From a virus, in the IMG/VR virus record IMGVR_UViG_3300007541_000031, positions 1 through 48,913 of that record: a stretch of 48,913 bases of DNA, one strand, 5' to 3'. Below, one piece after another: positions 1 through 13,860 of the stretch. The first letter of the stretch is position 1; every line of letters begins with the position of its first letter. The position numbers were made by a program, and so were the translations under genes. Under the pieces are notes generated by a model. The model worked only from the letters and a program-made list of their open reading frames with translations, made no database searches and was not told the origin of the DNA.

Positions 1-1132
1 ATTTAATTGAATAATAAAGTTTCTTATATTGCATGTCTTTAAGTTTTTCCAAGATAGCAATACCAACTCCAACATTTTCAACTACGAGTAGGCAGGTGCC
101 ATATTCTGTTCCTGCGTCGTATAAAATCCTCGAATACATATCTAGATCGGGCTTACCTTGATATTCGGCTACAACTGTCATTGTGTCAACCCGAACAATA
201 TGAAAGCAACTAAAGTCAGCTCCGTCTCCACGAGCAACGTCCGCGGAAAGAATATAAGGAACTCCTTCTTGATATCTTTCCCATATCCAAAAATTTCTGT
301 CATAACCAGTTCTATATATTGGGTCTTGAACGTCATGAATAATTCTCTCAAGGTCTTCAGGGTTGATTACTGTTTCTCCTGAAGCATTAAAAGAACACTC
401 AAGCTCTTGCGCGATTTGTCTCTTAGACATGTTTCGTGTTTCTTTCTCAAACCATTCTTGGTCCCGCTCAGGGTGAACGTCCCACATAAGTTTAATTGGG
501 TGAAAATCATTCAATCCGGTCTCGGATTCGCTATAGGTTTTGTGGAACCAATTTCCTACCCCGTTAGGCGTCGACAATGCGATACAACGCCCCCCTGTTG
601 ACAAAGTAGGGTAAAGACCCGTCCACAACTCTTCGAGGCCGTCAACGAACGCTGCCTCGTCTATAATAAGCAATGACAAAGCTTCCGAACGACCAGCGTC
701 TCCAGAAGTGGTTGCGGCTTTAACTTGAGAGCCATTTGTAAGTTCAAACGATTGCTTGTTATCAACTGCAATCTTTGATATCAACATGAAAGAAGGAAGA
801 TTTTTGAAAATCATCTTAACCTTCTTTACAAGGTTTGTTGCTGTGGTGAGTTTCGTTGCAATAACGAGAACGTTCTTTTCTCGGTGAAACAACATGAACC
901 AAGCAACATAGGCAGCTGAGACGGTTGAGATCCCAAGCTGCCTACCTTTTAAGATTACGTTGAAACGATAGTCGTTAAAGTCCTTGAGAAGATCTTTCTG
1001 ATATTCATACGTTTTGAACGGTATCTGACCTTTCAGTGGGTGAGAGATCTTACAATAGTTGTCAATAAAATATTGAGGATCTTTTCCGCACTTTACAATT
1101 TCTTTAACGATTTCATTTTTGGTGAGTTTCAT
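1..1132 (-). CDS. Terminase large subunit (T4 gp17-like), C-terminus cut by window edge
   Basis: Packaging motor ATPase/nuclease that pumps DNA into the prohead. The reading frame is open from the ATG at 1132 to the left edge (377 codons), so the nuclease C-terminus is missing. Visible motifs: an adenine-binding/Walker A-like segment LKGRQLGIST at residues 61-70 (compare SRQLGKT in T4 gp17), Walker B LLIIDEAAF at 154-162, the coupling motif ALSTPNG at 185-191, and the start of the RNase H-fold nuclease with SADVARGDGAD at 296-306 (D298 as first metal ligand) and VVEN at 350-353 (E352 as second). Its ATG overlaps the stop of the preceding leader protein (ATGA), so it is probably translationally coupled. 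The N-terminus MKLTKNEIVKEIVK superficially resembles the leader family but lacks the I-x-E site. Identity is secure from the motif order. Confidence 0.95.
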   Translation of the reverse strand, partial: MKLTKNEIVKEIVKCGKDPQYFIDNYCKISHPLKGQIPFKTYEYQKDLLKDFNDYRFNVILKGRQLGISTVSAAYVAWFMLFHREKNVLVIATKLTTATNLVKKVKMIFKNLPSFMLISKIAVDNKQSFELTNGSQVKAATTSGDAGRSEALSLLIIDEAAFVDGLEELWTGLYPTLSTGGRCIALSTPNGVGNWFHKTYSESETGLNDFHPIKLMWDVHPERDQEWFEKETRNMSKRQIAQELECSFNASGETVINPEDLERIIHDVQDPIYRTGYDRNFWIWERYQEGVPYILSADVARGDGADFSCFHIVRVDTMTVVAEYQGKPDLDMYSRILYDAGTEYGTCLLVVENVGVGIAILEKLKDMQYKKLYYSIK

Positions 1133-1605
1133 ACCCCTCCGGCATCTTGTAATCTTTTAAGATTGGCTGCTTTGAATTTTGGATCATTAATTGTCATCAT
1201 ACCAAAACCACCACCGGTAGGATTTTTCACTCTTCCATAATTAAGCTCTGTATCAGCACGAACTTTACCTGCTGCTTTTTGATTAGCATATTTGGCAAAC
1301 ATTTTTAGAAAATAGTGCAACTCTTGTTCGTCCTTAACATTAAAAAGATTATGTTTATCTGTGACGTTCATGAAGATTTGAGCAGCATTTCCCATAGCTC
1401 CCCCAACTAGATCGCTGAGAATGATTTGTTCTCTAGCTCTTGTGTATGGAGTTCCTTGTGGCTTTTTTGCTTCTGGTTCTTTAGGCTCTTCTTTCTTTTT
1501 ACCTTTGATGAAATCGAACAGTCCTTCATCAAGCTCTTCTTCGTTAACAACAGCATCAAGCTCTTCTTTGATGATTCGCTTTAATGTTTCTTTTGTAAGT
1601 TTCAT
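1129..1605 (-). CDS. Leader-bearing small protein upstream of terminase
   Basis: A 158-residue protein of unknown function. Residues 1-16 are MKLTKETLKRIIKEEL, the leader shared by seven ORFs in this window, with I12-K-E14. Next comes an acidic, lysine/proline-rich linker (about residues 20-55), then an alpha-helical body containing LSDLVGGAMGNAAQIFMNV and a glycine-rich NPTGGGFGMM segment near the C-terminus. It starts inside the stop of the upstream gene (ATGA overlap) and its own stop overlaps the terminase ATG, so it belongs to the packaging/head cassette. A small terminase or head-associated role is possible from position alone, but I see no DNA-binding motif to support it. If the leader is a prohead propeptide (inference), this would be a capsid-internal protein. 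Confidence 0.8.
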   Translation of the reverse strand: MKLTKETLKRIIKEELDAVVNEEELDEGLFDFIKGKKKEEPKEPEAKKPQGTPYTRAREQIILSDLVGGAMGNAAQIFMNVTDKHNLFNVKDEQELHYFLKMFAKYANQKAAGKVRADTELNYGRVKNPTGGGFGMMTINDPKFKAANLKRLQDAGGV

Positions 1606-2156
1606 TTTTGGTTATCTCCAGGTTTAATGAATTCATTTTGAGGACGTTTTGCTTTTGCGGTCTCCAAAAATCTTTTTGTAATGTCTCGAACTGAAGCTTC
1701 GGAAGGGGCTCCGATTTGATCCATTTGCAAGCCACCAATTTTATAATGTTGATATGCTTGAACAAAAGTGCGAACTCTAGACGTTGTTTGTACAATAATC
1801 TGAGGTTCACCCTTTGGAGTTAAGGACACAGAATTACCTGTAATTGCTTTATACTCCTTTTGTAAAAACTTTTTAACTTCGTTAATAGTTTGTGCGATTT
1901 CATTTTCAAATCCATCGTCTTTTAAGTCTTTCATCATTACGTCGGATTGATAGTTGATAATCATTGAATCGCCATAAAATTTTACTTTGAATCCGTCAAT
2001 GCAGCGCTTATCAAGTAATGGAATGCCTTCTTCTCGTTTTAAGCCTGTGGTGCGTACTTGTCCGTCGAGAGAGTAGTTCTCCAAGTGGCCGCCGTCATAA
2101 GCGTTAGCTGCGGCTTGAGATAAGCCTCTGATAATTTCTAATGTTTCTTTGCTCAT
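1602..2156 (-). CDS. Conserved hypothetical phage protein (head/neck region)
   Basis: A 184-residue protein with a compact alpha/beta composition: an N-terminal SQAAANAYDGGHLENYS segment, a KREEGIPLLDKRCIDGFKVKF segment, a strand-rich middle (FYGDSMIINYQSD) and a TTSRVRTFVQAYQHYKIGG stretch near residue 130. From memory, similar proteins occur beside terminase genes in uncultured marine phages, but I cannot name a function. It is coupled by ATGA overlaps to the zinc-ribbon protein upstream and the leader protein downstream. Position favours a head-completion, neck or packaging accessory role (inference). No signal peptide, membrane segment or catalytic motif is visible. Confidence 0.8.
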   Translation of the reverse strand: MSKETLEIIRGLSQAAANAYDGGHLENYSLDGQVRTTGLKREEGIPLLDKRCIDGFKVKFYGDSMIINYQSDVMMKDLKDDGFENEIAQTINEVKKFLQKEYKAITGNSVSLTPKGEPQIIVQTTSRVRTFVQAYQHYKIGGLQMDQIGAPSEASVRDITKRFLETAKAKRPQNEFIKPGDNQK

Positions 2157-2524
2157 TTATTTGGTCTCCAACCTGATTTCCATCTTTCTTCTCGACCCTC
2201 AACCCACTGGACATAACACTTAAAGCAACAATCAAATTTTGTCATATATAAATCATCGACAGATTTGAATGAATATATATTGCATGTCGGACAAGAGCGT
2301 CTTGATTCTCTATTAAGTAGTTCTTTTGAAATTAAAACACCACTTACCTCTTCCTTCTCTTGTTCCTCGTTTAAGTGTCGGTAATTTGTTTTTAAGTCAG
2401 ATAAATAAAATCTTTCCATTTCTTCATCCCAACTTGCCTTTGGGTGCTCAACTGTTTCTTTGCCATATTTATCAGCAATTGCTTTTTCAAGCTTTGCAAT
2501 ATAATCTGGGTCTTTGTTTTTCAT
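2153..2524 (-). CDS. Small zinc-ribbon protein
   Basis: A 123-residue protein. The C-terminal half holds CPTC (near residue 78) and CCFKC (near residue 98), spaced like a four-cysteine zinc ribbon, followed by the tail VQWVEGREERWKSGWRP. The N-terminal half is charged and helical. From memory the C-terminal ribbon plus WVEGREERW tail is common in marine myovirus genomes next to terminase, with no assigned role. The start at 2524 follows the membrane protein gene by a few bases; the stop overlaps the next ATG. It may be structural or an assembly factor; nothing indicates sequence-specific DNA binding. Confidence 0.8.
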   Translation of the reverse strand: MKNKDPDYIAKLEKAIADKYGKETVEHPKASWDEEMERFYLSDLKTNYRHLNEEQEKEEVSGVLISKELLNRESRRSCPTCNIYSFKSVDDLYMTKFDCCFKCYVQWVEGREERWKSGWRPNK

Positions 2525-2528
2525 TTAC

Positions 2529-2930
2529 TTACTCCTGAATTTGATTTACTGCATAATAAGTAGCCAATGAAGCAGCTGTTCCAATCACAAAGCCACCAAA
2601 AAAAGCCCACATTGATCTCTGAGGTTTTGACTGCGCTCTAAGCACATTTAACTCTTCTTCTTTGATTGCCATTAGGTTTGTATGTTTATAGTCTAATGCG
2701 GTATATTTGGCCTCCAATATATCATATTCATATTGCTTATCTGCCACCATAAGTGTGCATTGTAGATCGTTTTGAATCTCGCATTGCTCAACGTTAAATT
2801 CGCATTGTGATACCATTGTAGCCAAAGCCTCATTGTTCAACAGTCTTCCACTGAAAGAAGCTTGTTCTCCCTCTTCAAGTTTTTCAAAGCGAGGCTCGGC
2901 AAAGGCCAAACTCATTAATATTAAAATCAT
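2529..2930 (-). CDS. Small secreted/membrane protein, possible lysis-cassette member
   Basis: A 133-residue protein with a short hydrophobic N-terminus ending in a plausible signal-peptidase site (LAFA-EP, residues 8-13). The soluble middle contains three cysteines (C43, C50, C58) and a helical stretch (60-100). A second hydrophobic helix lies near the C-terminus (WAFFGGFVIGTAASLATYYAV, 108-127). That topology, anchored with a periplasmic middle, fits an outer or inner spanin-like or holin-associated protein, but no lipobox is present. It starts in an ATGA overlap with the coiled-coil membrane protein upstream. Lysis function is inferred from topology and neighbours only. Confidence 0.7.
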   Translation of the reverse strand: MILILMSLAFAEPRFEKLEEGEQASFSGRLLNNEALATMVSQCEFNVEQCEIQNDLQCTLMVADKQYEYDILEAKYTALDYKHTNLMAIKEEELNVLRAQSKPQRSMWAFFGGFVIGTAASLATYYAVNQIQE

Positions 2931-3271
2931 TTCTTCTCCGTTATTCCAAATCCTCTGAGGGCGTTATCCAGCTCCTCAGAATCTTCCTCAAGTTCTTCTT
3001 TTCTTTCATTCTTTTTTGCTTCCGCTTCTTTCTTCTTTTTATCGGCTTCAGCATGTGCACCTTTAACGGAAGCTACGTGAGTCTCACCAGCGGCCTTAGT
3101 TCCTTCGAGCTCAATCTTCCCAGAAGTATCTTTAACCTCAGCTTCTTCTTCTTTTAGTTGTTGCAGCTTTTTTTCTCTAAGTAAATTAATAATCTCTTTT
3201 ACGATCAAAGAAAGCCCCAAGGTGCCAAATGCACCTAGGAGCGTCTTCCAGTTTTCTTTAAGCCACTGCAT
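2927..3271 (-). CDS. Single-span membrane protein with charged coiled-coil tail (i-spanin-like?)
   Basis: I choose the start at 3271 (MQWLKENWKTLLG), giving 114 residues: it makes a TAATG overlap with the preceding stop and has GGAAAGG just upstream, whereas longer starts lie inside the upstream gene without a ribosome site. Residues 8-30 form one transmembrane helix. The rest is highly charged, Lys/Glu/Ala-rich and predicted helical (33-105). An N-terminal anchor followed by a charged coiled coil is the architecture of inner-membrane spanins (Rz), though low-complexity tails of this kind also occur in other phage membrane proteins. It sits between a two-span holin-like protein and a signal-peptide protein. 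Confidence 0.65.
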   Translation of the reverse strand: MQWLKENWKTLLGAFGTLGLSLIVKEIINLLREKKLQQLKEEEAEVKDTSGKIELEGTKAAGETHVASVKGAHAEADKKKKEAEAKKNERKEELEEDSEELDNALRGFGITEKK

Positions 3272-3573
3272 TAGCCTTTCCATACTTTTGCAAAGTCGAT
3301 AGCGGTTTGGCCGCCAATATAAGTCATGGCAATCATACCCCAAGTGTCGGCATCAAGACCAACTCCCCAATACAAAAGCCCAGTAGCAACGGTAAAAACA
3401 AGCAGCTTGCGAGAAATAACTCTTTCTTGAATAGCATCAAACAACCCCTTGTCTTTTCTGTCAAGATAAAGAGCTTCTCGAATATCGTCTTTGCGCTCAT
3501 CGAGAGTCTCTTTAATCTTTTCTTTGCAGTTAATATCTGCTAGCTTTTCAGCTAATTCTTCTTTTAAACCCAT
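3271..3573 (-). CDS. Two-span membrane protein, holin-like
   Basis: A 100-residue protein: a charged amphipathic N-terminal half (1-52), then two hydrophobic segments, LLVFTVATGLLYWGVGL (57-73) and TWGMIAMTYIGGQTAIDF (77-94), ending in a short basic tail. Small size, two membrane spans and adjacency to two other small membrane proteins fit a class II-type holin, but no enzymatic endolysin gene is next to it in this window. The start at 3573 has AGGAG upstream. Its promoter was not found; the only intergenic gap ahead is about 40 bases. Other possible roles are superinfection exclusion or a virion membrane component. Confidence 0.65.
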   Translation of the reverse strand: MGLKEELAEKLADINCKEKIKETLDERKDDIREALYLDRKDKGLFDAIQERVISRKLLVFTVATGLLYWGVGLDADTWGMIAMTYIGGQTAIDFAKVWKG

Positions 3574-3605
3574 AATTAAGTCTCCTATTGTGAACTTAAT
3601 TAGTT

Positions 3606-3630
3606 GCCCAAATCACAATTTGACTTGGGC
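3606..3630 (-). other. Stem-loop overlapping the stop codon of the SbcD-SbcC fusion gene
   Basis: In the minus-strand transcript GCCCAAGTCA pairs with TGATTTGGGC around a 5-base loop (10 pairs, one of them G-U). The TGA stop codon lies inside the hairpin. No U-run follows, so it is not a standard intrinsic terminator. It may be a processing or stability element that separates the nuclease message from the downstream lysis/packaging cassette, or chance. Confidence 0.4.
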
Positions 3631-6600
3631 ATATCCATCGACCTTATCAATTTCAATTGTCTTATCGACAACGTCTTTGAGATTTTCGAGGTGAGTAATT
3701 AACAGAACCGTCTTGAAATGGGACTTAATCATTTGTAATAATCTCACAAAACCTTCCATGTGATCTGCGTCAAGTGCAGTGGCTGGTTCGTCAAGAATAA
3801 AGAAGTCAGGTCTCGGCAAAGAGGATACTGATATCAAAGCTAGGCGAATAGCCATAGAAGCAATTGTCTTTTCAGCACCTGAACCCATTGACAAGGGACG
3901 AGGATCGTATTTAGGGTGCTTTAAGTAAATCTCTAGGTTGCTATCGTCATTGTCAATCAAAACGTCAAAATCAACGATTGAAGAAAGGATAGAAGCAATC
4001 TCTGCGTTAATTACAGACAACATAGACTTAATTACCTCATAAGAGATTCCGTTGGCGTGAGTTGCTTGGGCGAATAAATCATAGGCGATATAATCACGTT
4101 CTGCGTCTTTAACCTTCTGAATTCCTTCTCGAGCTTCTTCAATAAGTCGAGAGGTGGCTCCTTTTTCTGACATTAGCTCTAGCAAGTCCGAGTTGCATTT
4201 TTTGCAATCTCTTTCTTTCATTGAGATAGTTTTGTTGATTGCCATTAAGTCTCGCTTGAGAGAAGATAGGTTCTCGTATGCTTCAATGTTTTCATTGTAA
4301 TATGCGATATCTTCCTCAATCTTTGGAATGCGATGCTCCATTAAAGAAACCTTACCTTCTGCGTTCTCAAATCGTAAAGACTTGTTTTGAATATCGGACT
4401 TTAGATTAATATAATCAATCTCGGTATTCACAAAGTTTTCAACTGTAATCTTCAATCTTTCTTCGTCGAACAAAGAAGCTTTCATTTTAAGATCCAAGAT
4501 AACATTATTTTGCTCTTCTTTTTTCTCGATAGCCTCAGAGATTTTAACCTTTGCTTCTTCTGCCTGCCTTACGAATTCGTTATTACAACAAAAAGAACAG
4601 TTGGGATCATATTCGTGGTCGTGCAACATATCAATCTTAGATTGCAATGAATTAACTTGTCTAGACAGCTTCTCGAACTTTGGAATCTCAGCCTTTAACA
4701 ACTTCTTTAATTCCTTCAAAGAGTTTAACTCTTCCTCAGCCCTAACAGCTTCTTCTTTCAAAGACTCCATTTGAGGCTCTAAAATGGCTAATTCTTCCCT
4801 CTTTGATTTTACTTCAATAGAAAGTTCGGACATTTCTTTTTGAGCCTTTGAGAGCGATTTTTGAGCTTGTGAGAGGGTACTTTGTAGCTCGTCGATATTA
4901 ATGTCTCTTTGTGCTGCTGCGCTTACTTGATCGTTAATTATCTTTTGCTCTTCTCTCAGAACTTCCAAACGAGCTTGGTGTCCTTCGCACTCGTCTTTCT
5001 TTTCTTCAATTTCTCCAAGAATTTCTGCGTATTCACTTAGGGCTTTCTTTAATCTCTTTTCCCAATCAACGGCATTAAGGTGTTTAATATATCCACGCAT
5101 TTCTGCCGAATCTTTTTTGACAGCCTTGTGCATTTCCTCAAAGATTTCAAGGTCTAAGAATTTTCCCAAGATAGCTTTACGCTTAGTAGAACCCTCATTG
5201 ATAAATCCAAACGAATCATGTTGGGCTGCCAAAGAGGTCATTAAGAAATCTTGGAAGTTTCCAATTGTAGATTGAATATTTGCGTCTGTCTCATTGCGAG
5301 TTGTACCATTCTTAGATTCAGCTTGAGTACCTAGAATCATTTTGGTGAAGTCCAAATCTGTCTTTGCAGCTGATTTTGTTCGCTCCAAAGTACGTGTAAT
5401 CTTATATGTATCGTCTCCGATATCAATTTCAATATTACACTTAGATTTATTTTGATTTTGATTAATGATATGAACATTCTTGCGCTCACCTTTCGAGGTG
5501 GTGTTAAACATTCCAAACAAAGCAGCGTCAATGATTGAAGACTTACCTGAATAGTTCTTGCCAAAGATACCAACAAGACCGCTTAGCTTTGAGAAATCAA
5601 TTGAATTACCTTTGCCATAGTTGAATAGGTAGTCCCATTGCATTTTCTTTAGTCGCCAAGTTACATTCCGAGACAAGTCAGAACTAACATACTTAGAAAA
5701 ATATTCCAAAGAAATTTCCTTTGCACGTTCTCTTGTCTCTTCATCAATCTCTTTTGTTGAAAGAAAGTCTTCCATGTATCCGCTGAACACATTAGCGTCT
5801 CGAATATTTTTTGAACGTCCCTTGTTGGTTTTTTCTTCAAACTGAGTTGCTTTGCTTACAACGCGGACAGATAATGGAGACCACTTTGATTGAGCGTAAT
5901 CTTCAAGGCGAACAAGTCTTGCTCTAGGAATATTGTGTTCGCAGACCAAACGCAAACGAGAATTTTTTGGAACGTCAACGTTTGGAAGCTGACCTTCTTT
6001 TGTAACCTCGACTGTAATGAATGGTCGTGGAGATTCAAACAATCTCATTTCTACTGAGTGTTTTTCTTTGCTGTGAATATTCCACATTAGATAACCTTTT
6101 CTGCGAGACTCTCCAAAGTTTTGCTGAACAGTTGAGCCTGCATACCATACACGCTTGTTTTCGTCAAGGTGCTGAGTTCTATGAATGTCTCCGAGCATAG
6201 CGTAGTCAAAATCATTAAAGATAGATATGTCGTCTTCTCCGTGATCTAACTCAAAGCCAGTTCCAACTTGGCAACCTTGAATTGCACCATGATACAGTGC
6301 GATATTGATAGCAGAGTTATCAGAAGGCTTAGTCCAATTATTTCGGTCAAAGACAGATAGAACATTGAACACTAAACCTTCTTCTGGAGAATACTCTTGA
6401 GAGTCTTTTAACAATGTCAGATTAGGATGTTTCAAAGCCTGAACGATTGGTGTGATAGCGTCTTGTCGATCACCATTCTTAAGGTTTCCGTCATGATTAC
6501 CGAGGATCACAATGGTAGGTGCAATATCAGCAAGATTCTTTAGGAAATTAGAAGCCATTTCAAAATACTCTGGAGATAGCTGAGTTTTTGTATGAGCTAG

Positions 6601-6735: not shown

Positions 6736-6764
6736 GTGCCCTCCTTTTGTTTGTTTGTATTAAT

Positions 6765-7066: not shown

Positions 7067-7902
7067 ACTAACTCCTTAAGTTGCTCTGGAATATCTGCTC
7101 TTGCAATTTGCAAGATTCTCAAGTATCTTCTAATAATACTATCGTATTGCTCTTGATTTGCACTCTGTTTAATCCAAGAATGAAAATCAGCAAAGGTATT
7201 TGTCTGCTCCATAGTAATTGGTCCAAAACTTTCCGCTAGAGCTTCTAGGGCAATCTGTGGACCCTCAATGAGCCACTCAACTTCACCTTTGTTTTTGATT
7301 CCGTGAAGATGACTAAATGACATACCTATTTCTGTGAAACAAGACAAGATAAGCTGAGTTCTGTGTAGGCCTTTGAGCCCTTGTTCTCCATGAGAATAAT
7401 AAGCCCAGCGAAGCCAATCAATATCTCCAACCATCCAATCAATCTGAACGTACTCACCTGTTGGCTTGTTGTCAGGTCCAAACTGAGGGAAACAAGAAAA
7501 TAAATTACCAGCGTTGACTTTCTTGAGTTCAACGGGGATACCCTCTTCTGTCATTTGTTCTCCAATTAATTCAAGCAATGCTCGCATTTTGCACATGTCA
7601 TAGGTTGCAGTTCGAGAACGTTTATGGATAGATTTATAACGCTCATACCAAGTGTCGTAGTCTACTCCCCAAAGGGCAAGGTTTGACTCAGTGAATGCTC
7701 GAATAATATGAGTAAAGTCAATGGCTAGATCTAGATCTCCAGACACAGCTTTCTTACCTGTCGACCCTACAGGCTCAAAGAAAGTTAAAGAGTGAGCCTT
7801 GTTAGGAAAGATTTTGCCTAATGATTTAATATAAGCATTGATTGTTGGTTGAATGTTTTCTAATTTAATAGAAGTTGTTTGTTCAAAAATATTACCGCCC
7901 AT
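7063..7902 (-). CDS. Pol-beta-superfamily nucleotidyltransferase (copy 2)
   Basis: A 279-residue protein with the nucleotidyltransferase signature GS-x8-D-x-D: G46-S47 and D56/D58 in VGSTGKKAVSGDLDLAID, and a likely third carboxylate D155 in YVQIDWMVGD. The C-terminal part (about 165-279) is helical. Family members transfer NMP groups to nucleic acids, proteins or small molecules; substrate cannot be read from sequence. A second protein of almost the same length with the same motif order (GS, DxD, VQID) lies immediately upstream, so the two may be ancient paralogs or partners. It has its own extended -10 promoter and AGGAGG ribosome site, and is coupled to the 96-aa acidic gene. Confidence 0.82.
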   Translation of the reverse strand: MGGNIFEQTTSIKLENIQPTINAYIKSLGKIFPNKAHSLTFFEPVGSTGKKAVSGDLDLAIDFTHIIRAFTESNLALWGVDYDTWYERYKSIHKRSRTATYDMCKMRALLELIGEQMTEEGIPVELKKVNAGNLFSCFPQFGPDNKPTGEYVQIDWMVGDIDWLRWAYYSHGEQGLKGLHRTQLILSCFTEIGMSFSHLHGIKNKGEVEWLIEGPQIALEALAESFGPITMEQTNTFADFHSWIKQSANQEQYDSIIRRYLRILQIARADIPEQLKELV

Positions 7903-7928
7903 TGGGACCTCCTTTGTATTATGTTTAT

Positions 7929-7957
7929 AATATAACTCGTTTGACGTTAGTTGTCAA
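7929..7957 (-). promoter_or_regulatory. Sigma-70-like promoter for nucleotidyltransferase copy 2
   Basis: TTGACA (7952-7957), 17-base spacer, TATATT (7929-7934) on the minus strand, about 27 bases before the ATG at 7902. It overlaps the end of the upstream nucleotidyltransferase gene. Confidence 0.8.
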
Positions 7958-8789
7958 GCAACTTTTCTATTCTTTTTAAAGCTTTTATTTTATTTTCACC
8001 TTTTGGTGTGCCAACCTCTCCGCTTTTAACTGAGACCATTGACTTGAATACTCCGACGACTCTTTTAAGTCCTCGGTCTGTTTTTATAGTGGATTCTGCT
8101 TGAGAAACCAAATCTTCAAAAGAAGTGTCAAGATTATACCCTCTTAAAATTTGCAGGACGGTGTCCCACTCTTTTGTTCTCCAGACAATCTTGCGCTCTT
8201 TGTTTTCCTTAGAGACAACTCGCAATTGAAGCTCGGTTGAACTGAGAGAGAATTCAATTTCTTCTTTCTCGGATACTTGAGGCTTCTCAATATTCAAAGA
8301 AGATAAAAGCTCCATTCCGTTTTCTTGTACAGCTATCTTTGTGAGGCCAAGGATCACCCCTTGTTTCTCTGCTGGTAAATCCAGAAAGGATTTTTTAAAT
8401 TGCAACTCCTCTTCAGATAAAGCAATGATATTATCAATTTGAACTGAGCCATTAGGTTGAGGGAAAGATACCGTCACAAGCTCTCCACTATTATAGCATT
8501 TTTTGCCCCGATATTTTTCAGATTCAAAGGGGATAATAAGGTCGTCCGAAAGTTTTTTAAAATTTTCCACCAATCTCTTTTTTAGAGATTTTTTGTCCTC
8601 TACTGTATCGAATAATACGATAAGATCCATATCTCCAAAATCCATTTTTGATAAATCTGAATTAAACGAGCCGCTCGTTTCAACTCGAACATATCCTTCG
8701 ATATTTCTCAATACTTCTTTTTCATAGCGCCTCAATACTTGCATAAAGTCTTTGCGCTGAATTCTATTACTTCCTGATACTCCTGACAT
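7947..8789 (-). CDS. Pol-beta-superfamily nucleotidyltransferase (copy 1)
   Basis: A 280-residue protein. Signature: G40-S41 in ETSGSFNSD, D53/D55 in FGDMDLIV, and D119 in GSVQIDNI, giving the three-carboxylate active site of the Pol-beta/MNT superfamily. The C-terminal half is rich in charged helices and contains ELQLRVVSKENKERKIVWRTKEW. The motif order and length match the neighbour at 7063-7902, but overall sequence is divergent. The substrate is unknown: tRNA end repair, nucleotidylation of a host protein or anti-defence modification are all possible and none is indicated. The ATG at 8789 follows AGGAGG and a strong promoter. Confidence 0.82.
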   Translation of the reverse strand: MSGVSGSNRIQRKDFMQVLRRYEKEVLRNIEGYVRVETSGSFNSDLSKMDFGDMDLIVLFDTVEDKKSLKKRLVENFKKLSDDLIIPFESEKYRGKKCYNSGELVTVSFPQPNGSVQIDNIIALSEEELQFKKSFLDLPAEKQGVILGLTKIAVQENGMELLSSLNIEKPQVSEKEEIEFSLSSTELQLRVVSKENKERKIVWRTKEWDTVLQILRGYNLDTSFEDLVSQAESTIKTDRGLKRVVGVFKSMVSVKSGEVGTPKGENKIKALKRIEKLLDN

Positions 8790-8817
8790 AATGTCCTCCT
8801 GTGTTTATTATGGATAT

Positions 8818-8846
8818 AATATAACACGTTGGAGGAAGCTTGTCAA
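8818..8846 (-). promoter_or_regulatory. Sigma-70-like promoter for nucleotidyltransferase copy 1
   Basis: TTGACA (8841-8846), 17-base spacer ending CGTGT, TATATT (8818-8823): extended -10. The 5' side of the -35 makes a near-palindrome (ATTTGACAAGC) like the other early promoters in this block. Confidence 0.82.
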
Positions 8847-8897
8847 ATAATTTTGTTTATTTTTTTGGTCGAGTTGGAGCTCTTCGGTATCTTTTTT

Positions 8898-8929
8898 AAG
8901 AGCGGCTTCGTTCGGAGCCACCTCTTTTT
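8898..8929 (+). terminator. Stem-loop with T-run on the plus strand
   Basis: AAGAGCGGCT pairs with AGCCACCTCTT (one bulged base, one G-T pair) around UCGUUCGG, and is followed on the plus strand by TTTTT. It reads as an intrinsic terminator for plus-strand RNA, although no plus-strand gene precedes it. On the minus strand, the direction of all genes here, the hairpin is followed by A residues rather than U. It overlaps the stop of the broken leader ORF. Confidence 0.4.
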
Positions 8930-9035
8930 AATCTTTCTCTTCGGATTCTTCCTCAGACTCTTCTTCGGCTTCCTCAAGAATTGCTTACAGCTCTTCTTTG
9001 ATAATTTCTTTTAGTGATTCTTTTGTAAGTTTCAT
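8928..9035 (-). pseudogene. Broken leader mini-ORF (nonsense codon 17)
   Basis: The ATG at 9035 makes a TAATG overlap with the primase stop and encodes MKLTKESLKEIIKEEL, then TAA at 8985-8987. Read through the stop, the frame continues as AILEEAEEESEEESEEKD and ends at 8928, so the intact form would be a 35-residue acidic leader peptide. The intact relative starting at 11042 has CAA (Gln) at the same position (GAGCTTCAAGCA versus GAGCTGTAAGCA), so a single C-to-T change explains the break. Either a decaying gene or a functional free 16-residue leader; readthrough is a third option. Confidence 0.65.
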
Positions 9036-9970
9036 TAGATGTTCTCCAGCATTTGTTCGAAAAAGAACATATCGTTCTTTATTTCTCTAGCATTAACTAG
9101 TCTCTCCTGAAACTCTTTGCCACCCATTTCTGAAACGTCAGCGTCGTCAATTGGAACTTTGTGAACTTCAAGATCGTACTTTAACATAGACTTGATAATC
9201 CATTCTGCTTTCTTCTCGGCGTCATGGTCAAGAGCCATGTAAACTGGTGTATCGTGAATTGCAATTGCTTGAAACAACCGAGACTTTTCTCGAAGGGTTG
9301 ATCCAAGAATCGGAATGGCATTGTTTCCAGCAGCGATAGCATCGAACACACCCTCCACAAGAATCACAGGTTCGTCCCAATCAATATTTAGTTCGTTAAA
9401 AACGATATCACGATCTGCTGGAGGGTTGAGGTACCGACGAGAATGCCCGACATAACTCCTAGCAATGAAATAATTAAGATCTCCGTCCACGTCAAAGGAC
9501 GGGATGATGATTCGTCCGCCATAGCGACCCTCCTTACAATAACCAATTTTCCACTTAAGGATTTCTCTTCTTCCAATTCCTCGAGACGACAAATATCTTA
9601 TTGCGTCCGTTGAGTCCATTGGAAGATCTTTGTTGCACAAAGACACAAAGCCTTCGGGCATTTCCAAGACTTGCTTTTCTTGAATGCTGTTGTATTCCTT
9701 GAACATCTCTTCAAAGTCTGACAAGTCAACGAGACCTTGAAGTTCTCGATACTTTTGTCTTTGTTGGTAATCTCCGAATCTTCTTACAATTCGGTAAATG
9801 TTCTTTCCTCGTTGATCACAAACCCAGCAGTGAAACCCGTTATTAAAATTGATTGCTAATTTCTTTTTGTGATGATTACAGAAAGGGCAGTGGTAATAGT
9901 ATTCACTTTGCCCTTGTCTCTTTGGATAACCTAAAATATTATTTAGGATTTTTAATTTATCTGCTTCCAT
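9035..9970 (-). CDS. DNA primase, zinc-finger plus TOPRIM (T4 gp61 / DnaG type)
   Basis: A 311-residue primase for lagging-strand RNA primers. The N-terminal CHC2-type zinc finger is CPFC (28-31) and CWVC (48-51). The catalytic core has GRIIIPSFDVDGDLNYFIARS (152-172) and YLNPP (180-184). TOPRIM motifs are PVILVEGVFDA (E206) and YMALDHDAEKKA (D248, D250). Length is close to T4 gp61 (about 340), much shorter than bacterial DnaG, so there is no separate helicase-binding domain of DnaB/DnaG size. The ATG at 9970 follows AGGAGG and an extended -10 promoter. A truncated second copy of its zinc-finger half lies at 11704-11880. The helicase partner is not in the window. Confidence 0.93.
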   Translation of the reverse strand: MEADKLKILNNILGYPKRQGQSEYYYHCPFCNHHKKKLAINFNNGFHCWVCDQRGKNIYRIVRRFGDYQQRQKYRELQGLVDLSDFEEMFKEYNSIQEKQVLEMPEGFVSLCNKDLPMDSTDAIRYLSSRGIGRREILKWKIGYCKEGRYGGRIIIPSFDVDGDLNYFIARSYVGHSRRYLNPPADRDIVFNELNIDWDEPVILVEGVFDAIAAGNNAIPILGSTLREKSRLFQAIAIHDTPVYMALDHDAEKKAEWIIKSMLKYDLEVHKVPIDDADVSEMGGKEFQERLVNAREIKNDMFFFEQMLENI

Positions 9971-9988
9971 AGTTGTCCTCCTTTAAAT

Positions 9989-10017
9989 AACTTAACACGA
10001 AAAGAAAGACTTGTCAA
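9989..10017 (-). promoter_or_regulatory. Sigma-70-like promoter for primase
   Basis: TTGACA (10012-10017) inside the palindrome ACTTGACAAGT, 17-base spacer ending CGTGT, then TAAGTT (9989-9994). The start codon is 18 bases beyond the -10, so the mRNA leader is only a ribosome site. Confidence 0.75.
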
Positions 10018-10024
10018 GTAGAAA

Positions 10025-10588
10025 TTAGTAATTAAATCTCTCTGCTCTCTCAATCGCCCTTGTAATCGTTGTTGTGTGAACTCCAATTTCTTTCGCAATT
10101 GATCCTTTTGTTTCTCCGGAAAGCCATCTTTCTCTGAACGATGCTTCTTGTTCGTCCGTAAATCTTTTTCGGGATTTACTTATCTTTCTTCGCCACTCTT
10201 CGCTCACGGGCTTGCCGTAATGTGGGTGGTTTTCGCCGGATAGTTTTTCAGATAGAAGTTGCTTCACTTCTTCTGTGTGGTTCAGTCCAGCCATAGGAGA
10301 GCCGGCTACTCTGCTAATGTTGTAGATTTCTTGACCGCCACCAAAGGCTTCGTCAAGATATTCTTGCTCTTTCGCAAGCAAGTTTGCTCTTCTTACTTCT
10401 TCAATCAATACGAACTCAAATTGATCTTCGCCGTGTTTGTTGTAAGAATTTTGAAGGTGGAAGTTGGTGTGAGTTCCGCTTCTCAAGTTTGACTTGTGAT
10501 GTCTCCACCTTCTCTTAATGTTGTTTGAAGATCCAATGTAAAATTTTCCATTGACCTTATTTGTTATTTTGTAAATTCCCGAGTTCAT
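10025..10588 (-). CDS. Free-standing GIY-YIG homing endonuclease with NUMOD3 and HTH
   Basis: A 187-residue endonuclease. The GIY-YIG catalytic domain is at 1-90: GIY (4-6), YIG (17-19), basic RRWRHH (26-31) and candidate catalytic Glu in LAKEQEYLD (E74/E76). A NUMOD3-type DNA-binding motif follows (SGENHPHYGKPVSEEWRRKIS, about 117-137) and then a C-terminal helix-turn-helix (KGSIAKEIGVHTTTITRAIE, 161-180). Such enzymes cut a specific site in related phages and spread by repair of the break. No intron is seen around it. The ORF overlaps the end of the small RHH-like gene by 32 bases, so the two are probably translated from one message. Confidence 0.92.
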   Translation of the reverse strand: MNSGIYKITNKVNGKFYIGSSNNIKRRWRHHKSNLRSGTHTNFHLQNSYNKHGEDQFEFVLIEEVRRANLLAKEQEYLDEAFGGGQEIYNISRVAGSPMAGLNHTEEVKQLLSEKLSGENHPHYGKPVSEEWRRKISKSRKRFTDEQEASFRERWLSGETKGSIAKEIGVHTTTITRAIERAERFNY

Positions 10589-10724
10589 TTTGACTATCCT
10601 CCGCTAACTTGGAGTTAATCAAGTTCTCAACAAACTTTCCAACTTTCAAACCCTTTTCTTTACAATAGTTTTTTAACTTCTCGTGGGTCTCTTCGTTGAT
10701 TTTGAGATTTTTTAAATTAGACAT
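10557..10724 (-). CDS. Small ribbon-helix-helix-like protein overlapping the homing endonuclease
   Basis: A 55-residue ORF too short for most gene callers: MSNLKNLKINEETHEKLKNY, then CKEKGLKVGKFVENLINSKL. A short strand followed by two helices with a conserved turn (KGLKVGKFV) fits an Arc/MetJ-type ribbon-helix-helix DNA-binding fold (inference from pattern). AGGAG lies 7 bases before the ATG. The last 32 bases overlap the start of the GIY-YIG gene in another frame, so it may control expression of the endonuclease or bind its target. The element ACTATTTAAAG lies just upstream, as before two leader genes. Confidence 0.72.
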   Translation of the reverse strand: MSNLKNLKINEETHEKLKNYCKEKGLKVGKFVENLINSKLAEDSQNELGNLQNNK

Positions 10725-10753
10725 GATAACTCCTTTTACTTTAAATAGTCTCT

Positions 10754-10786
10754 AAAAGATAAAAAAAGATAAAAAAGGATAAAAAA
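10754..10786 (-). repeat. Short A/T-rich tandem repeat, period 10
   Basis: Three to four tandem units of AAAAAAGGAT/AAAAAAAGAT type between the leader gene ending at 10800 and the RHH-like gene. In the minus-strand transcript this is a U-rich tract (UUUUUUAUC repeats) without an adjacent hairpin. Possibly a slippage-prone spacer or a weak termination tract. Confidence 0.6.
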
Positions 10787-10799
10787 GTTTAGATTACCA

Positions 10800-11042
10800 T
10801 TATGCGTCGTATCGCCTGATAGCTTCTTCAAAAGAGGCTTTAGAAAGACCTAAATAATTAGGGTTCTGAGAATACTCTCTCCATAATTGCTCCTCTGACA
10901 TGTTTATTGGGTCATCAGAATCCCACCAATCATTTAATAGTGCACGGACATGATCAGGATTAATGTCCCCGTCTTCTTCTCTCAAAGTTGCTTGAAGCTC
11001 TTCTTTGATAATTCTTTTTAATGTTGCTTTTGTAAGTTTCAT
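10800..11042 (-). CDS. Leader-bearing small acidic protein
   Basis: An 80-residue acidic protein. Residues 1-16 are MKLTKATLKRIIKEEL (leader family, I12-K-E14). The body (REEDGDINPDHVRALLNDWWDS and onward) is helical with tryptophans and ends EEAIRRYDA. No known domain is recognised; the body has a helical composition like small phage internal proteins. The ATG follows AAGGAG. The DNA from codon 16 back through the ribosome site to ACTATTTAAAGCATAA is nearly identical to the corresponding part of the gene at 11941-12216, showing a recent cassette duplication. Confidence 0.8.
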   Translation of the reverse strand: MKLTKATLKRIIKEELQATLREEDGDINPDHVRALLNDWWDSDDPINMSEEQLWREYSQNPNYLGLSKASFEEAIRRYDA

Positions 11043-11084
11043 TTTTTTGTCTCCTTAAAATGAATGATTATGCTTTAAATAGTG
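10999..11084 (-). repeat. Leader cassette repeat, copy A
   Basis: About 86 bases covering the leader codons 1-14 of the 80-aa gene, its ribosome site, the CATTCATTT spacer and the ACTATTTAAAGCATAA element. By eye roughly 90% identical to copy B. In copy B the ACTATTTAAAGCATAA bases are the last codons (LFKA-stop) of the NMN-adenylyltransferase-like gene; here the same bases are intergenic, so copy A carries a scrap of that gene. This suggests that B, or a relative, was the donor. Confidence 0.7.
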
Positions 11085-11105
11085 TGCACACAGAAGGTTT
11101 GTCAA
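11076..11105 (-). promoter_or_regulatory. Sigma-70-like promoter for the 80-aa leader gene
   Basis: TTGACA (11100-11105), 18-base spacer, TATTTA (11076-11081). Weaker than its siblings because the -10 is provided by the ACTATTTAAAG element instead of TATATT. It overlaps the end of the GNAT-like gene by a few bases. Confidence 0.55.
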
Positions 11106-11119
11106 GTGAAAAGTTTATT

Positions 11120-11707
11120 TTAAATTTCCCATTTTAGTTTATCGCCAAGAGAGTTGATGATGGTTGGTTCCTTTGTATACCTCTTTGAGAGGGGCGATGA
11201 TTGCCAATCTTCTCCTGCTGAATTCTGAGTGCAATTGTCTTTGCGTTTACGTGTAAGAGTATTTTTCATATCGTCAAGTTGATGTGCGAGAACATCGGAT
11301 CTGTTTTTTAAGTAAAAATCCCATACACCAGCAGCATCCTGTGAGACAATATGTCTATCCGCTGTCAAGCCATTTGACTTCATTGTCGCTACTTCAATTG
11401 CAACATCATAAAGAAACGGGCCCCAGCCATTAGCAGCTCGAGCTACTGTGACTACTGCTGATCCGTCACATGGATCGCCCCATGGTTCAACAGAGTCGAA
11501 CCTAACATCTCCCCATTCTGGGGCATTTTCAGGTTTGTATTCTCCATTTGAGTCAGTGAGGGCTACCGCGATTGTTGCACCCCATGCCCCTTTCTCTATG
11601 TAATGAACCCTAACATACACATCTTCCGGAAGGTCAGTGTGTGTTTTCATGCCTTCTTCCAATACTTCGTTAATGAGGCGTTTTAGAATTGATTCTGTAA
11701 GTTTCAA
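11120..11707 (-). CDS. Leader-bearing GNAT-like protein, paralog 2 (TTG start)
   Basis: 195 residues from a TTG start at 11707, chosen because GGAG lies 8 bases upstream and because it restores the leader KLTESILKRLINEVLEEG (I12-N-E14, also L16-E-E18). A longer ATG frame only reads through the upstream pseudogene. The body is clearly paralogous to the gene at 12821-13447: LPEDVYVRV, GWGPFLYDVAIEVATMKSNG, SDR/ADRHIVSQDAAGVWDFY and SPLSKRYTKEPTII are shared. GWGPxLYDVAIE resembles the acyl-CoA-binding RxxGxG loop plus helix of GNAT acetyltransferases, so a GNAT-like fold is my best guess; it is not proven. Sits downstream of the broken primase and probably uses its promoter. Confidence 0.72.
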   Translation of the reverse strand: MKLTESILKRLINEVLEEGMKTHTDLPEDVYVRVHYIEKGAWGATIAVALTDSNGEYKPENAPEWGDVRFDSVEPWGDPCDGSAVVTVARAANGWGPFLYDVAIEVATMKSNGLTADRHIVSQDAAGVWDFYLKNRSDVLAHQLDDMKNTLTRKRKDNCTQNSAGEDWQSSPLSKRYTKEPTIINSLGDKLKWEI

Positions 11708-11880
11708 TTTATCATCTCCGTTAAATGAATGTCTGAAAATAAATAGTAGCCATTTGCGAAGTTCACCGACAATTTCTTTTTGTGGTGATTGCAAAAAGGA
11801 CAATGATACAAATGCTCATCGCCCTTTTGATAATAAGACCCAAGAACTTGGGTTACAATTTTTCTTTTGTCCTCGATCAT
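11704..11880 (-). pseudogene. Truncated primase zinc-finger copy
   Basis: A 58-residue remnant starting MIEDKRKIVTQVLG, followed by HCPFCNHHKKKLSVNFANGY, which matches residues 27-46 of the primase at 9035-9970 (HCPFCNHHKKKLAINFNNGF). The match stops exactly before the second cysteine pair (CWVC) and the frame then enters the ACTATTTA/CATTCATTT leader-cassette sequence and ends. Promoter and AGGAGG ribosome site remain intact. DNA divergence from the full gene is considerable, so the duplicate is not recent. It may now serve mainly as a promoter for the GNAT-like leader gene. Confidence 0.85.
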
Positions 11881-11897
11881 AATGTCCTCCTGTTTAT

Positions 11898-11926
11898 AAG
11901 ATAACACATCCCAGAAGGTTTGTCAA
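11898..11926 (-). promoter_or_regulatory. Sigma-70-like promoter before the primase remnant
   Basis: TTGACA (11921-11926), 17-base spacer ending TGTGT, TATCTT (11898-11903): extended -10, followed by AGGAGG and ATG. The promoter is fully preserved although the gene is broken, consistent with use by the downstream GNAT-like gene. Confidence 0.78.
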
Positions 11927-11940
11927 GTAAAAAGTTTAGA

Positions 11941-12216
11941 TTACATTTTTTTAATTAAACTTTCTAATTTCTTCAAGAGTCTATCATGGCCTGCCGTTTC
12001 TGTGCCTTCATACATGTAGCCGATTTCTTCAAGTGCTCCTTCTTTATCTCCATTTGAAACTAACTCTTTGAGATCGCTGAAATCAAGGATCATACCCAAG
12101 TCGTCGCCTTTTTCTAGATTATTAATCATTTCAAGAGCTTGGTCTTTGCCCTCTCCGAGAGTCGCTTCCAACTCTTCTTTGATGATTCTTTTTAATGTTG
12201 CTTTTGTAAGTTTCAT
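11941..12216 (-). CDS. Leader-bearing small acidic helical protein
   Basis: 91 residues from the ATG at 12216 (AAAGGAG upstream); a longer frame extends into the preceding gene and is not credible. Residues 1-16 are MKLTKATLKRIIKEEL, identical to the 80-aa protein, then EATLGEGKDQALEMINNLEK and a helical body that looks like tandem short helices (LDFSDLKELVSNGDKEGALEEIGYM) ending LLKKLESLIKKM. No domain recognised. It lies directly after the NMN-adenylyltransferase-like gene; the stop of that gene falls 26 bases before its ATG, so the two are probably one transcript. Confidence 0.8.
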   Translation of the reverse strand: MKLTKATLKRIIKEELEATLGEGKDQALEMINNLEKGDDLGMILDFSDLKELVSNGDKEGALEEIGYMYEGTETAGHDRLLKKLESLIKKM

Positions 12217-12258
12217 TTTATTATCTCCTTTAAATGAATCGTTATGCTTTAAATAGTG
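12172..12258 (-). repeat. Leader cassette repeat, copy B
   Basis: Near-identical partner of copy A at 10999-11084: leader codons, ribosome site, ATTCATTT spacer and ACTATTTAAAGCATAA. Here ACTATTTAAAGCATAA encodes the last residues and stop of the upstream enzyme, indicating this is the native arrangement. A third, more diverged copy spans about 11665-11752. Confidence 0.7.
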
Positions 12259-12763
12259 CGAGAACAGATTGTTCGTCAATTCCGTCAGGCAAAAATTCGG
12301 CGATTGAGTCGCCGTTTTGTAAAGCCGCTCGGAAGTCGGTTGCGGATAAGTCGTCTTGTTGCTCAAAGATTGGGGCAGAAACAATATCTGAACGTATGTC
12401 GTCAAAGTAAGCATTGAATCTCTTTCTGTACCCGACATCTTTTGTTGAGCATCCAAGAGCAACAGGCTCAAGAACTCTGTTCTCGGCATAATCGTAGCAA
12501 TCGGCAAGGGGATTTGTGTAAGATCTGTTCTTTCCTTGTCGGATAGTTGCTCGCTTGTAATTCATCTTTGGGTGATCAAGCAATCCATAGAGTCGCAAAA
12601 CCTCTTCGGTTTGCTCTAAAGTAATTGTGTCTCGAGACTTTTCTCCAATGTAAAGACGAACTTCTTTTACATCAGGATTATCAAGATAGAACTTGATGTA
12701 GTCGTAGTGACCTTTGTGTGGTGGTTTGAATCCACCGGCGATTAGTACAGTGTATTTTTGCAT
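12242..12763 (-). CDS. NMN/cytidylyl-type nucleotidyltransferase (HxGH)
   Basis: A 173-residue enzyme of the HxGH nucleotidyltransferase superfamily (NadM, CoaD, cytidylyltransferases). The N-terminal GGFKPPHKGH (10-19) carries the HxGH motif; LSATDFRAAL (139-148) sits where the C-terminal ISxTxxR nucleotide-binding motif is expected. Length matches archaeal-type NMN adenylyltransferase, so NAD synthesis is plausible, but pantetheine or polyol-phosphate substrates cannot be excluded. No NAMPT or phosphoribosyl partner is in the window. Strong promoter and GGAGG ribosome site; overlaps the leader gene cassette at its 3' end. Confidence 0.85.
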   Translation of the reverse strand: MQKYTVLIAGGFKPPHKGHYDYIKFYLDNPDVKEVRLYIGEKSRDTITLEQTEEVLRLYGLLDHPKMNYKRATIRQGKNRSYTNPLADCYDYAENRVLEPVALGCSTKDVGYRKRFNAYFDDIRSDIVSAPIFEQQDDLSATDFRAALQNGDSIAEFLPDGIDEQSVLALFKA

Positions 12764-12784
12764 AATGTCCTCCGTGTTTTATAT

Positions 12785-12813
12785 AATGTAACACGTTGAG
12801 ACACACTTGTCAA
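12785..12813 (-). promoter_or_regulatory. Sigma-70-like promoter for the HxGH nucleotidyltransferase
   Basis: TTGACA (12808-12813) in the palindrome ACTTGACAAGT, 17-base spacer ending CGTGT, TACATT (12785-12790). Confidence 0.78.
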
Positions 12814-12820
12814 GTAAAAA

Positions 12821-13447
12821 CTATAAATTAAAATCTTGAGTTAGCAATTTTCCCGAGGAAAACAGCTCGTTAATCGTTGTCGGTTCTTTTCTGTAAAGCT
12901 TTGACAGCGGAGATTGATCCCAAGAGATCCCTACTCTATCTTCATACTCTCGAGAAATATTTTGAAGGCAATCGTCATCATGGTCGTCGGGAGTCAAAGT
13001 TCCATCCTCATCATCGAGTTGTAATTTTTCAACGTCTCCTCGTTGACTATTATATTTATCCCACACATTGTATGCGTATTGAGATACAATTGAACGGTCG
13101 CTTACAAGGCCTCCAGCCTTCATTGTGGCGACTTCAATCGCAACGTCATACAACAGAGGGCCCCAGCCCTTAGAAGCGTCAGAATAGGCAACCATAAGCG
13201 CGTGAAGGCAAGGAAATTCGTCTGCCAATTGAACCTCGAGATCCAAAGAGATGCTTCCATAAGGACTTGATTCATTCTCGTATTTTATCGGGCGACCATT
13301 GGCATTTGAATAATAAATTTCAATAACGTCCTCAACGTCTCCGTCAATCTTAATAAACACGTCTTCTGGAAGATCGGCAATTGTTTTCATTCCTTCTTGG
13401 AGAACTTCGTTGATAAGCTTCTTTAGTATTGCTTCTGTAAGTTTCAT
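12821..13447 (-). CDS. Leader-bearing GNAT-like protein, paralog 1
   Basis: A 208-residue protein. Leader MKLTEAILKKLINEVLQEG (I12-N-E14; also L16-Q-E18). The conserved core shared with the paralog at 11120-11707 is GWGPLLYDVAIEVATMKAGG (94-113), SDRSIVSQYAYNVWDKY (117-132), an aspartate-rich stretch (LTPDDHDDDC, 151-160) and SPLSKLYRKEPTTI (179-192). GWGPLLYDVAIE followed by a strand and an S-x-x-A-x-x-VW helix resembles GNAT acetyltransferases (inference). It begins in an ATGA overlap with the ParB-like leader gene, so two leader proteins are coupled. If exported into the head, it could be an injected enzyme acting early on host targets. Confidence 0.78.
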   Translation of the reverse strand: MKLTEAILKKLINEVLQEGMKTIADLPEDVFIKIDGDVEDVIEIYYSNANGRPIKYENESSPYGSISLDLEVQLADEFPCLHALMVAYSDASKGWGPLLYDVAIEVATMKAGGLVSDRSIVSQYAYNVWDKYNSQRGDVEKLQLDDEDGTLTPDDHDDDCLQNISREYEDRVGISWDQSPLSKLYRKEPTTINELFSSGKLLTQDFNL

Positions 13448-13860
13448 CCAAATAGTTCCTTGTATTTTTCTGGAGTCTCAGGATTGTCGAGGTCTAAGAT
13501 CTTTGCTTTCAATGGTTTCTCGTGATCAACTGCTTTTTGTAAGCGATGGTTTCCGTCTAACACTTCTGTGTATTCGCCGTCTTTCTTAACAATGATGATT
13601 GGAAAACTTAAATCCGCAGCATCGACCCTTTCCTGGCTTGTGATTCCCGGACCAACAGGTAAACGTTCTTTGCCTCGAGCTTTTAAGACTTGGTTTTTAA
13701 CCTCTACCGGATCTACATCGATGGTTTCGTTTCCAAGATAGTCGTTTATCTCTCCGATAGTGACCTTTTCGCCATTTTCGAGATTCCAAGAAGTGTCTTG
13801 CCAACCTTCATTAATGACTTCGAGAATAAGTTGTTTTAATTTTGCTTCTGTAAGTTTCAT
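13444..13860 (-). CDS. Leader-bearing ParB/sulfiredoxin-fold protein
   Basis: 138 residues from the ATG at 13860 (AGGAG upstream); the in-frame upstream ATG lacks a ribosome site and would precede the leader. Leader MKLTEAKLKQLILEVINEG (I12-L-E14; I16-N-E18). The C-terminal half has the ParB/Srx pattern: a strand FPIIIVKKDGEYTEV, then LDGNHRLQKAVDHE (101-114), with DGNHR as nucleotide/active-site loop. Known relatives include ParB CTPases, small nucleases and kinases; which activity applies is not visible. It directly follows the RuvC-like gene and is coupled to the GNAT-like gene. Confidence 0.82.
   Translation of the reverse strand: MKLTEAKLKQLILEVINEGWQDTSWNLENGEKVTIGEINDYLGNETIDVDPVEVKNQVLKARGKERLPVGPGITSQERVDAADLSFPIIIVKKDGEYTEVLDGNHRLQKAVDHEKPLKAKILDLDNPETPEKYKELFG

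What the first reader, a model, noticed from the sequence alone, without database searches (positions are those of the whole stretch)
1129..13860. Shared N-terminal leader on seven different ORFs: candidate capsid-targeting propeptide system
Seven ORFs (starts at 1605, 9035, 11042, 11707, 12216, 13447, 13860) begin with the same module: MKLTK-x-x-LKRIIKEEL or MKLTE-x-x-LK-x-LINEVL-x-EG. The bodies behind it differ: GNAT-like, ParB-like, small acidic, and a terminase-adjacent protein. All seven keep I12-x-E14, and three of them also have I/L16-x-E18. T4-type prohead proteases (gp21) cut after (L/I)-x-E, and T4 internal proteins carry an N-terminal capsid-targeting sequence of similar size. I infer that the leader sends enzymes into the head to be cleaved and injected. 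The invariance could alternatively reflect an amphipathic helix or a scaffold-binding helix.
Basis: partly seen in the sequence, partly recalled or inferred. Interest (0 to 1): 0.88.

Follow-up and report, generated by a model that had tools for sequence, protein, structure and literature searches.

The report
Phage capsid-shipping tag on unrelated proteins
A large group of uncultured, mostly unstudied T4-related phages puts the same short N-terminal tag, ending in the likely cut site of their head protease, on hundreds of otherwise unrelated small proteins, most likely so that these proteins are packed into the virus head, trimmed and injected into the host cell.

Summary
All seven starts are real. 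One (9035) is a decayed 16-codon remnant, and two (11707, 13447) are paralogs, so six intact leaders sit on five unrelated bodies. Outside the window the leader is a large phage-specific module: 261 distinct leader ORFs, about 200 unrelated body clusters, no match in about 85,000 bacterial and archaeal genomes. In 128 leaders chosen only by residues 1-9, I12 is 96% and E14 98% conserved while residue 13 varies, the L/I-x-E pattern that T4 gp21 cuts; a second hydrophobic-x-E follows near residue 22. All seven leader-bearing records of at least 160 kb encode a gp21-type protease and a gp23-type capsid protein. Leader genes often sit beside the protease and carry the promoter motif of scaffold, sheath and tail-tube genes. 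The window lacks the protease because it ends inside TerL; a relative with 90% identical TerL has it 5.7 kb further on. Best reading: a capsid-targeting propeptide that works like T4's CTS but has its own sequence and two candidate cut sites. Packaging, cleavage and injection are inferred; there is no virion proteomics. "GNAT-like" is not supported; "ParB-like" is weakly supported.

The parts
1540..1605 (-). leader 1 (residues 1-22, MKLTKETLKRIIKEELDAVVNE) of the 158-aa protein 1129-1605, in the terminase operon
   Evidence: HMM 41 bits; homologs with the same position before TerL in L039, L058
1129..1605 (-). whole leader gene, 158 aa; body of unknown family
1..1132 (-). terminase large subunit, first 377 codons, runs off the window; starts MKLTKN by coincidence but lacks I12-x-E14 (residue 14 is K)
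8988..9035 (-). leader remnant MKLTKESLKEIIKEEL followed by in-frame TAA: decayed copy, no body, no promoter motif
10800..11042 (-). leader gene, 80 aa; leader = 10977-11042 (MKLTKATLKRIIKEELQATLRE)
11120..11707 (-). leader gene, 195 aa, TTG start; leader = 11654-11707 (18 residues, ends L16-E-E18); paralog of 12821-13447
11941..12216 (-). leader gene, 91 aa; leader = 12151-12216 (MKLTKATLKRIIKEELEATLGE)
12821..13447 (-). leader gene, 208 aa; leader = 13394-13447 (ends L16-Q-E18|GMKT); start overlaps the stop of 13444-13860
13444..13860 (-). leader gene, 138 aa, possibly ParB/sulfiredoxin-like body; leader = 13807-13860 (ends I16-N-E18|G)
   Evidence: (phrog_17560)
11076..11082 (-). CTATTTA late-type promoter motif 40 nt before leader gene 11042
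11740..11746 (-). CTATTTA late-type promoter motif 39 nt before leader gene 11707
12250..12256 (-). CTATTTA late-type promoter motif 40 nt before leader gene 12216
13883..13889 (-). CTATTTA late-type promoter motif 29 nt before leader genes 13860/13447
12242..12763 (-). leaderless cytidylyltransferase-like gene with an early-type TTGACA promoter; its relative in L114 carries the leader

Best explanation
The leader is a capsid-targeting propeptide. It is made on proteins expressed mainly in the late phase and forms a short helix that binds the prohead core, so the proteins are co-assembled into the head. The gp21-type prohead protease then cuts after I12-x-E14, or after the second hydrophobic-x-E near residue 18-24, or after both, and frees the body inside the head for injection with the DNA. 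Shown here: a shared protein-level module on unrelated bodies; an I-x-E core; a second site at the leader/body junction; protease and gp23 in the same genomes; location beside head genes; late-type promoter motif. Inferred: core binding, cleavage, which site is used, presence in virions, injection, and the function of the bodies (by T4 analogy, host take-over or anti-defence).
For: (1) Among 128 leaders chosen only on residues 1-9 and outside the scan pattern, I12 is 96%, E14 98%, residue 13 variable (K 66%); E14 is the best-conserved residue after position 9. (2) Hydrophobic-x-E ending at residues 20-24 in 70% of leaders, against 10.7% in equal windows of the bodies; conservation ends at residue 23. 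In the homologs of 13447 whose N-terminus could be read, a hydrophobic-x-E stays at the junction despite leader indels. (3) gp21-type protease PF03420 and gp23 PF07068 in 7 of 7 records of at least 160 kb; 25 of 26 protease-negative records also lack gp23 and so lack the head locus, and the other ends about 4 kb past gp23. (4) Leader gene within 1.5 kb of the protease in 4 of 7 near-complete records (p=0.009) and 13 of 24 protease loci. (5) Capsid protein keeps LL[RK]E|[AS] at the gp23 cut position. (6) CTATTTA precedes scaffold, sheath and tail-tube genes; leader genes 9/44 versus 85/1171 others, p=0.005. (7) T4 IPII/IPIII begin MKTYQEFIAE|A; T4 targeting residues 4, 7 and processing residues 8, 10 (PMC9026906) fall on leader L8, I11, I12, E14 at an offset of four. 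(8) 245 bodies form 201 clusters, like T4 IPs that share only the leader (PMC12373910).
Against: No virion proteomics, and no cultured relative found with this leader. E15 (87-93%) and L16 are conserved beyond the first proposed cut, so that site may be uncut or these residues bind something. Three of seven near-complete records have no clear leader gene beside the protease. One leader gene (L114:1239-1805) has an early-type promoter. Bodies are acidic (median pI 5.2), unlike the basic T4 internal proteins. The window itself holds no protease.
Confidence: 0.76

Rival explanations
1. Uncleaved docking helix: the leader is an amphipathic helix that binds scaffold, portal or another virion protein, and the I-x-E is part of the binding face, not a cut site.
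For: E15 and L16 are conserved after the first site; residues 6 and 7 are genome-specific although the bodies are unrelated (0.42 v 0.21 and 0.57 v 0.20), as expected for a co-evolving partner or for gene conversion between leaders.
Against: A docking helix does not predict variable residue 13 between near-invariant I12 and E14, nor a second hydrophobic-x-E kept at the leader/body junction through indels. Hydrophobic moment of the consensus is not clearly higher than in shuffles (p=0.21).
Confidence: 0.14
2. Shared expression cassette: late promoter, ribosome site and first codons duplicated and shuffled for expression; the leader peptide itself does nothing.
For: In the window the conserved unit spans promoter, ribosome site and the first codons for 11042, 11707 and 12216; ATGAAACTTACA is identical in six of seven and differs only by the TTG start in 11707.
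Against: Across 261 leaders synonymous third positions vary while amino acids hold, and upstream sequences differ widely, so selection acts on the peptide. Leaders 1605 and 13447 lack the promoter unit.
Confidence: 0.04
3. The leader sends proteins to another place or complex, for example an early replication or host-takeover complex, and is not a virion signal.
For: Some leader genes lie among DNA-metabolism genes; one leader fusion (L114:1239-1805) has an early-type promoter.
Against: Leader genes in the window carry the late-type motif while interleaved primase, Mre11-Rad50 and cytidylyltransferase genes carry TTGACA; leader genes flank the prohead protease.
Confidence: 0.06

Closest known systems
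T4 capsid-targeting sequence (CTS) of internal proteins IPI, IPII, IPIII
   Same: Short N-terminal peptide beginning MK and ending (F/I)-I-x-E, shared by otherwise unrelated small proteins; gp21-type protease in the genome; genes scattered among early genes.
   Different: Consensus MK[LI]TKxxLKxIIKEEL...hxE is about 18-24 residues instead of 10, has two candidate cut sites, residue after the first site is E instead of A; many more copies, body families and tandem arrays per genome; bodies acidic.
phiKZ/SPN3US-type head propeptides (gp175/gp245 protease)
   Same: Propeptides of head proteins with several redundant glutamate cut sites (PMC9026906).
   Different: I know of no common short sequence on those proteins; protease and capsid here are T4-type.
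Flavobacterium phage immuto repeated N-terminus MENFDLKKFLVENKLT
   Same: Near-identical N-terminus on three ORFs of a phage syntenic with the window, with L-x-E in it.
   Different: Different sequence; not tested for processing; may be an analogous tag.

Membership tests
T4-type capsid-targeting sequence / internal proteins | Short N-terminal peptide shared by otherwise unrelated proteins | tested here: met
   261 distinct leaders; 245 bodies in 201 clusters
T4-type capsid-targeting sequence / internal proteins | Peptide contains L/I-x-E, the gp21 cleavage motif | tested here: met
   I12 96%, E14 98% in leaders not selected for it
T4-type capsid-targeting sequence / internal proteins | gp21-type prohead protease in the same genome | tested here: met
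   7 of 7 near-complete relatives; window is a fragment without it; relative G047 with 90% identical TerL has it in the same operon
T4-type capsid-targeting sequence / internal proteins | Recognisable homology to MKTYQEFIAE | tested here: inconclusive
   Key positions align at an offset of four by eye; no statistical homology; leader HMM gives no hit of 10 bits or more in the T4 regions held
T4-type capsid-targeting sequence / internal proteins | Late expression with head genes | tested here: inconclusive
   Motif evidence only: CTATTTA shared with scaffold, sheath and tail-tube genes, four sites in the window; one leader fusion has an early-type promoter
T4-type capsid-targeting sequence / internal proteins | Protein present inside the mature head | not testable with these tools
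   needs virion proteomics
T4-type capsid-targeting sequence / internal proteins | Peptide removed by the prohead protease | not testable with these tools
   needs N-terminal mass spectrometry or in vitro cleavage
T4-type capsid-targeting sequence / internal proteins | Injected and active against host (e.g. anti-restriction) | not tested
   bodies have almost no known families
GNAT acetyltransferase (body of 13447/11707) | GNAT fold | tested here: inconclusive
   Pfam none; partly confident model (pLDDT 67), no PDB match with E below 0.3
ParB/sulfiredoxin fold (body of 13860) | ParB/Srx fold and DGxHR motif | tested here: inconclusive
   DGNHRLQKA; top fold hits are sulfiredoxin, ParB, Noc (best E=0.06, prob 0.84) on a low-confidence model; weak ParB PHROG hits

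The most novel reading that the evidence does not exclude
A lineage-wide shipping label: a large clade of uncultured T4-like phages has its own CTS, unrelated by detectable descent to T4's, with two-step processing and genome-specific binding residues (6 and 7). The label marks a pool of hundreds of non-homologous injected proteins, most with no known relatives.
Probability: 0.45. Interest if true: 0.8.

Novelty: new variant of a known kind. Interest (0 to 1): 0.64.

Why it matters
If right, a 16-22 residue string identifies injected phage proteins from sequence alone in phages nobody has cultured. That turns hundreds of anonymous ORFs into candidate anti-defence or host-takeover proteins; T4's three internal proteins, which share only the leader, all block restriction enzymes (PMC12373910). 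It also gives a ready packaging tag, extends the CTS idea beyond T-even phages, and shows a free-standing enzyme with and without the tag (L114 against the window).

Tried and rejected
Leader search in cultured phages by short tblastn found nothing, but power is low; blastn of leader DNA gave A/T-rich chance hits. A viral-contig search with the baseplate protein and one with 13860 gave no relatives. The protease query was typed with errors in its first third, so I use it only as a pointer. Cultured syntenic phages immuto and Mel-JY01 (parts of each were read) and a cyanophage region lack this leader. TerL starting MKLTKN was considered as an eighth leader and rejected: no E14, and distant TerL proteins align there without it. 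DNA-level cassette as sole cause was rejected by synonymous variation. GNAT label not supported. No paper in the library prints the motif, which is weak evidence because papers seldom print such strings.

Full report
THE OBSERVATION. All seven starts carry the module, and all have I12-x-E14. Corrections: 9035 stops after 16 codons and is a remnant; 11707 starts with TTG; 11707 and 13447 are paralogs (52%). So there are six intact leaders on five unrelated bodies. Each intact leader also has a second hydrophobic-x-E, at residue 18 (LEE, LQE, INE) or 22 (VNE, LRE, LGE). The TerL at the left edge (1-1132) begins MKLTKN but lacks E14, so MKLTK alone is not diagnostic.

HOW WIDESPREAD. The loci hold 286 leader ORFs, 261 of them distinct, from 105 loci. 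Two versions of the pattern gave no match in 84,980 bacterial and archaeal genomes. The leader is therefore phage-specific within what was searched. The leader HMM finds 3 to 12 leaders of 10 bits or more per near-complete genome, often in tandem arrays.

ANATOMY. Information is high through residue 16, moderate at 19, 20 and 22 (V, L, E), and falls to background at 23-24. Because the scan pattern fixed most of residues 1-16, I repeated the count on 128 leaders that do not match the pattern and were chosen only on residues 1-9: I12 96%, E14 98%, E15 87%, residue 13 variable. A hydrophobic-x-E ends between residues 20 and 24 in 70% of leaders against 10.7% in body windows of equal size. Synonymous positions vary, so selection is on the peptide. 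In the family of 13447, leaders differ in length, but those that could be read keep a hydrophobic-x-E directly before the body.

BODIES. 245 bodies fall into 201 clusters, 174 of them singletons. Of 126 scanned, almost none match Pfam or PHROGs. They are short (median 95 residues), acidic, and almost free of membrane-like segments. One case is instructive: L114:1239-1805 is the leader fused to a cytidylyltransferase-like enzyme which is leaderless in the window (12242-12763), G031, L024 and L071. The joint lies right after M-G-E.

GENOME CONTEXT. Seven of seven leader-bearing records of 160 kb or more carry a gp21-type protease and a gp23 capsid protein. Of 26 protease-negative records, 25 also lack gp23; in the other, gp23 is about 4 kb from the contig end. 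Leader genes lie within 1.5 kb of the protease in 13 of 24 distinct loci, and in 4 of 7 near-complete records against an expectation of 0.14 each. Many of the larger set are fragments fetched because they hold leaders, so the 4 of 7 figure (p=0.009) is the fairer one. The capsid precursors keep LL[RK]E|[AS] at the gp23 cut position, which suggests T4-like specificity. The window ends in TerL; in G047, with 90% identical TerL, the order is leader, 186-aa homolog of window 1602-2156, leader, leader, TerL, portal, further small genes, protease, with the protease 5.7 kb past the TerL start.

EXPRESSION. CTATTTA is among the most enriched upstream words in all six genomes read and precedes scaffold, sheath and tail-tube genes; TTGACA precedes groEL, primase and Mre11 genes. 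Leader genes carry CTATTTA more often than others (9/44 v 85/1171, p=0.005). In the window, four sites at -29 to -40 serve leader genes 13860 (with 13447 coupled), 12216, 11707 and 11042, while interleaved primase, cytidylyltransferase and Mre11-Rad50 genes have TTGACA at -47 to -58. 11042 also has a TTGACA at -63, and the L114 leader fusion has an early-type promoter, so timing need not be strictly late. That CTATTTA is a late promoter is an inference from the genes it precedes.

COMPARISON WITH T4. T4 IPII and IPIII start MKTYQEFIAE and gp22 starts MLKEQLIAE. The literature places CTS targeting at residues 4 and 7 and processing at 8 and 10 (PMC9026906). Shifted by four, these are leader L8, I11, I12, E14. 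This alignment is by eye. T4's IPs share only the leader and block different restriction enzymes (PMC12373910), and phiKZ propeptides have several redundant cut sites, which is like the two sites here. It works like a CTS; membership by descent is not established.

CO-VARIATION. Within a contig, leaders on unrelated bodies agree at residues 6 and 7 far more than between contigs (0.42 v 0.21; 0.57 v 0.20). This may be gene conversion or a genome-specific binding partner; I cannot separate the two.

CONCLUSION. Targeting into the head with processing is the best explanation (0.76). Every wet step (packaging, cleavage, injection) is inferred.

Noticed in passing
six near-complete relatives and window: Two promoter words: CTATTTA before structural genes and CTTGACA before early genes. 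CTATTTA differs from the T4 late promoter TATAAATA and may be a distinct late promoter.
   Followed up: partly
L213 (Flavobacterium phage immuto) 18588, 3762; L211 1803: Three ORFs share MEN(T)FDLKKFLVEN(K/R)LT, possibly an analogous tag in a cultured phage.
   Followed up: no
L176 (G031 112695-112925); L217 14184-14411 (annotated RpsU): A small ribosomal S21-like gene lies just downstream of the protease in the head operon.
   Followed up: no
L114:1239-1805 against window 12242-12763: Natural fusion of the leader to an enzyme that is leaderless in relatives.
   Followed up: yes
L080:3623-4417, L072, L108, L218: Leader and non-leader proteins share a motif like KKDACYxKVKxxxxVWPSAYAS, also in a cyanophage record.
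   Followed up: no
window 8988-9035: Decayed leader copy with in-frame stop directly after the primase gene.
   Followed up: partly
relatives, gene just after the protease (e.g. L176, G031 112901-113326): A conserved 137-144 aa protein starts with a leader-like helix (LKKxLKPLIKECIKEV), perhaps a core protein with a diverged tag.
   Followed up: no
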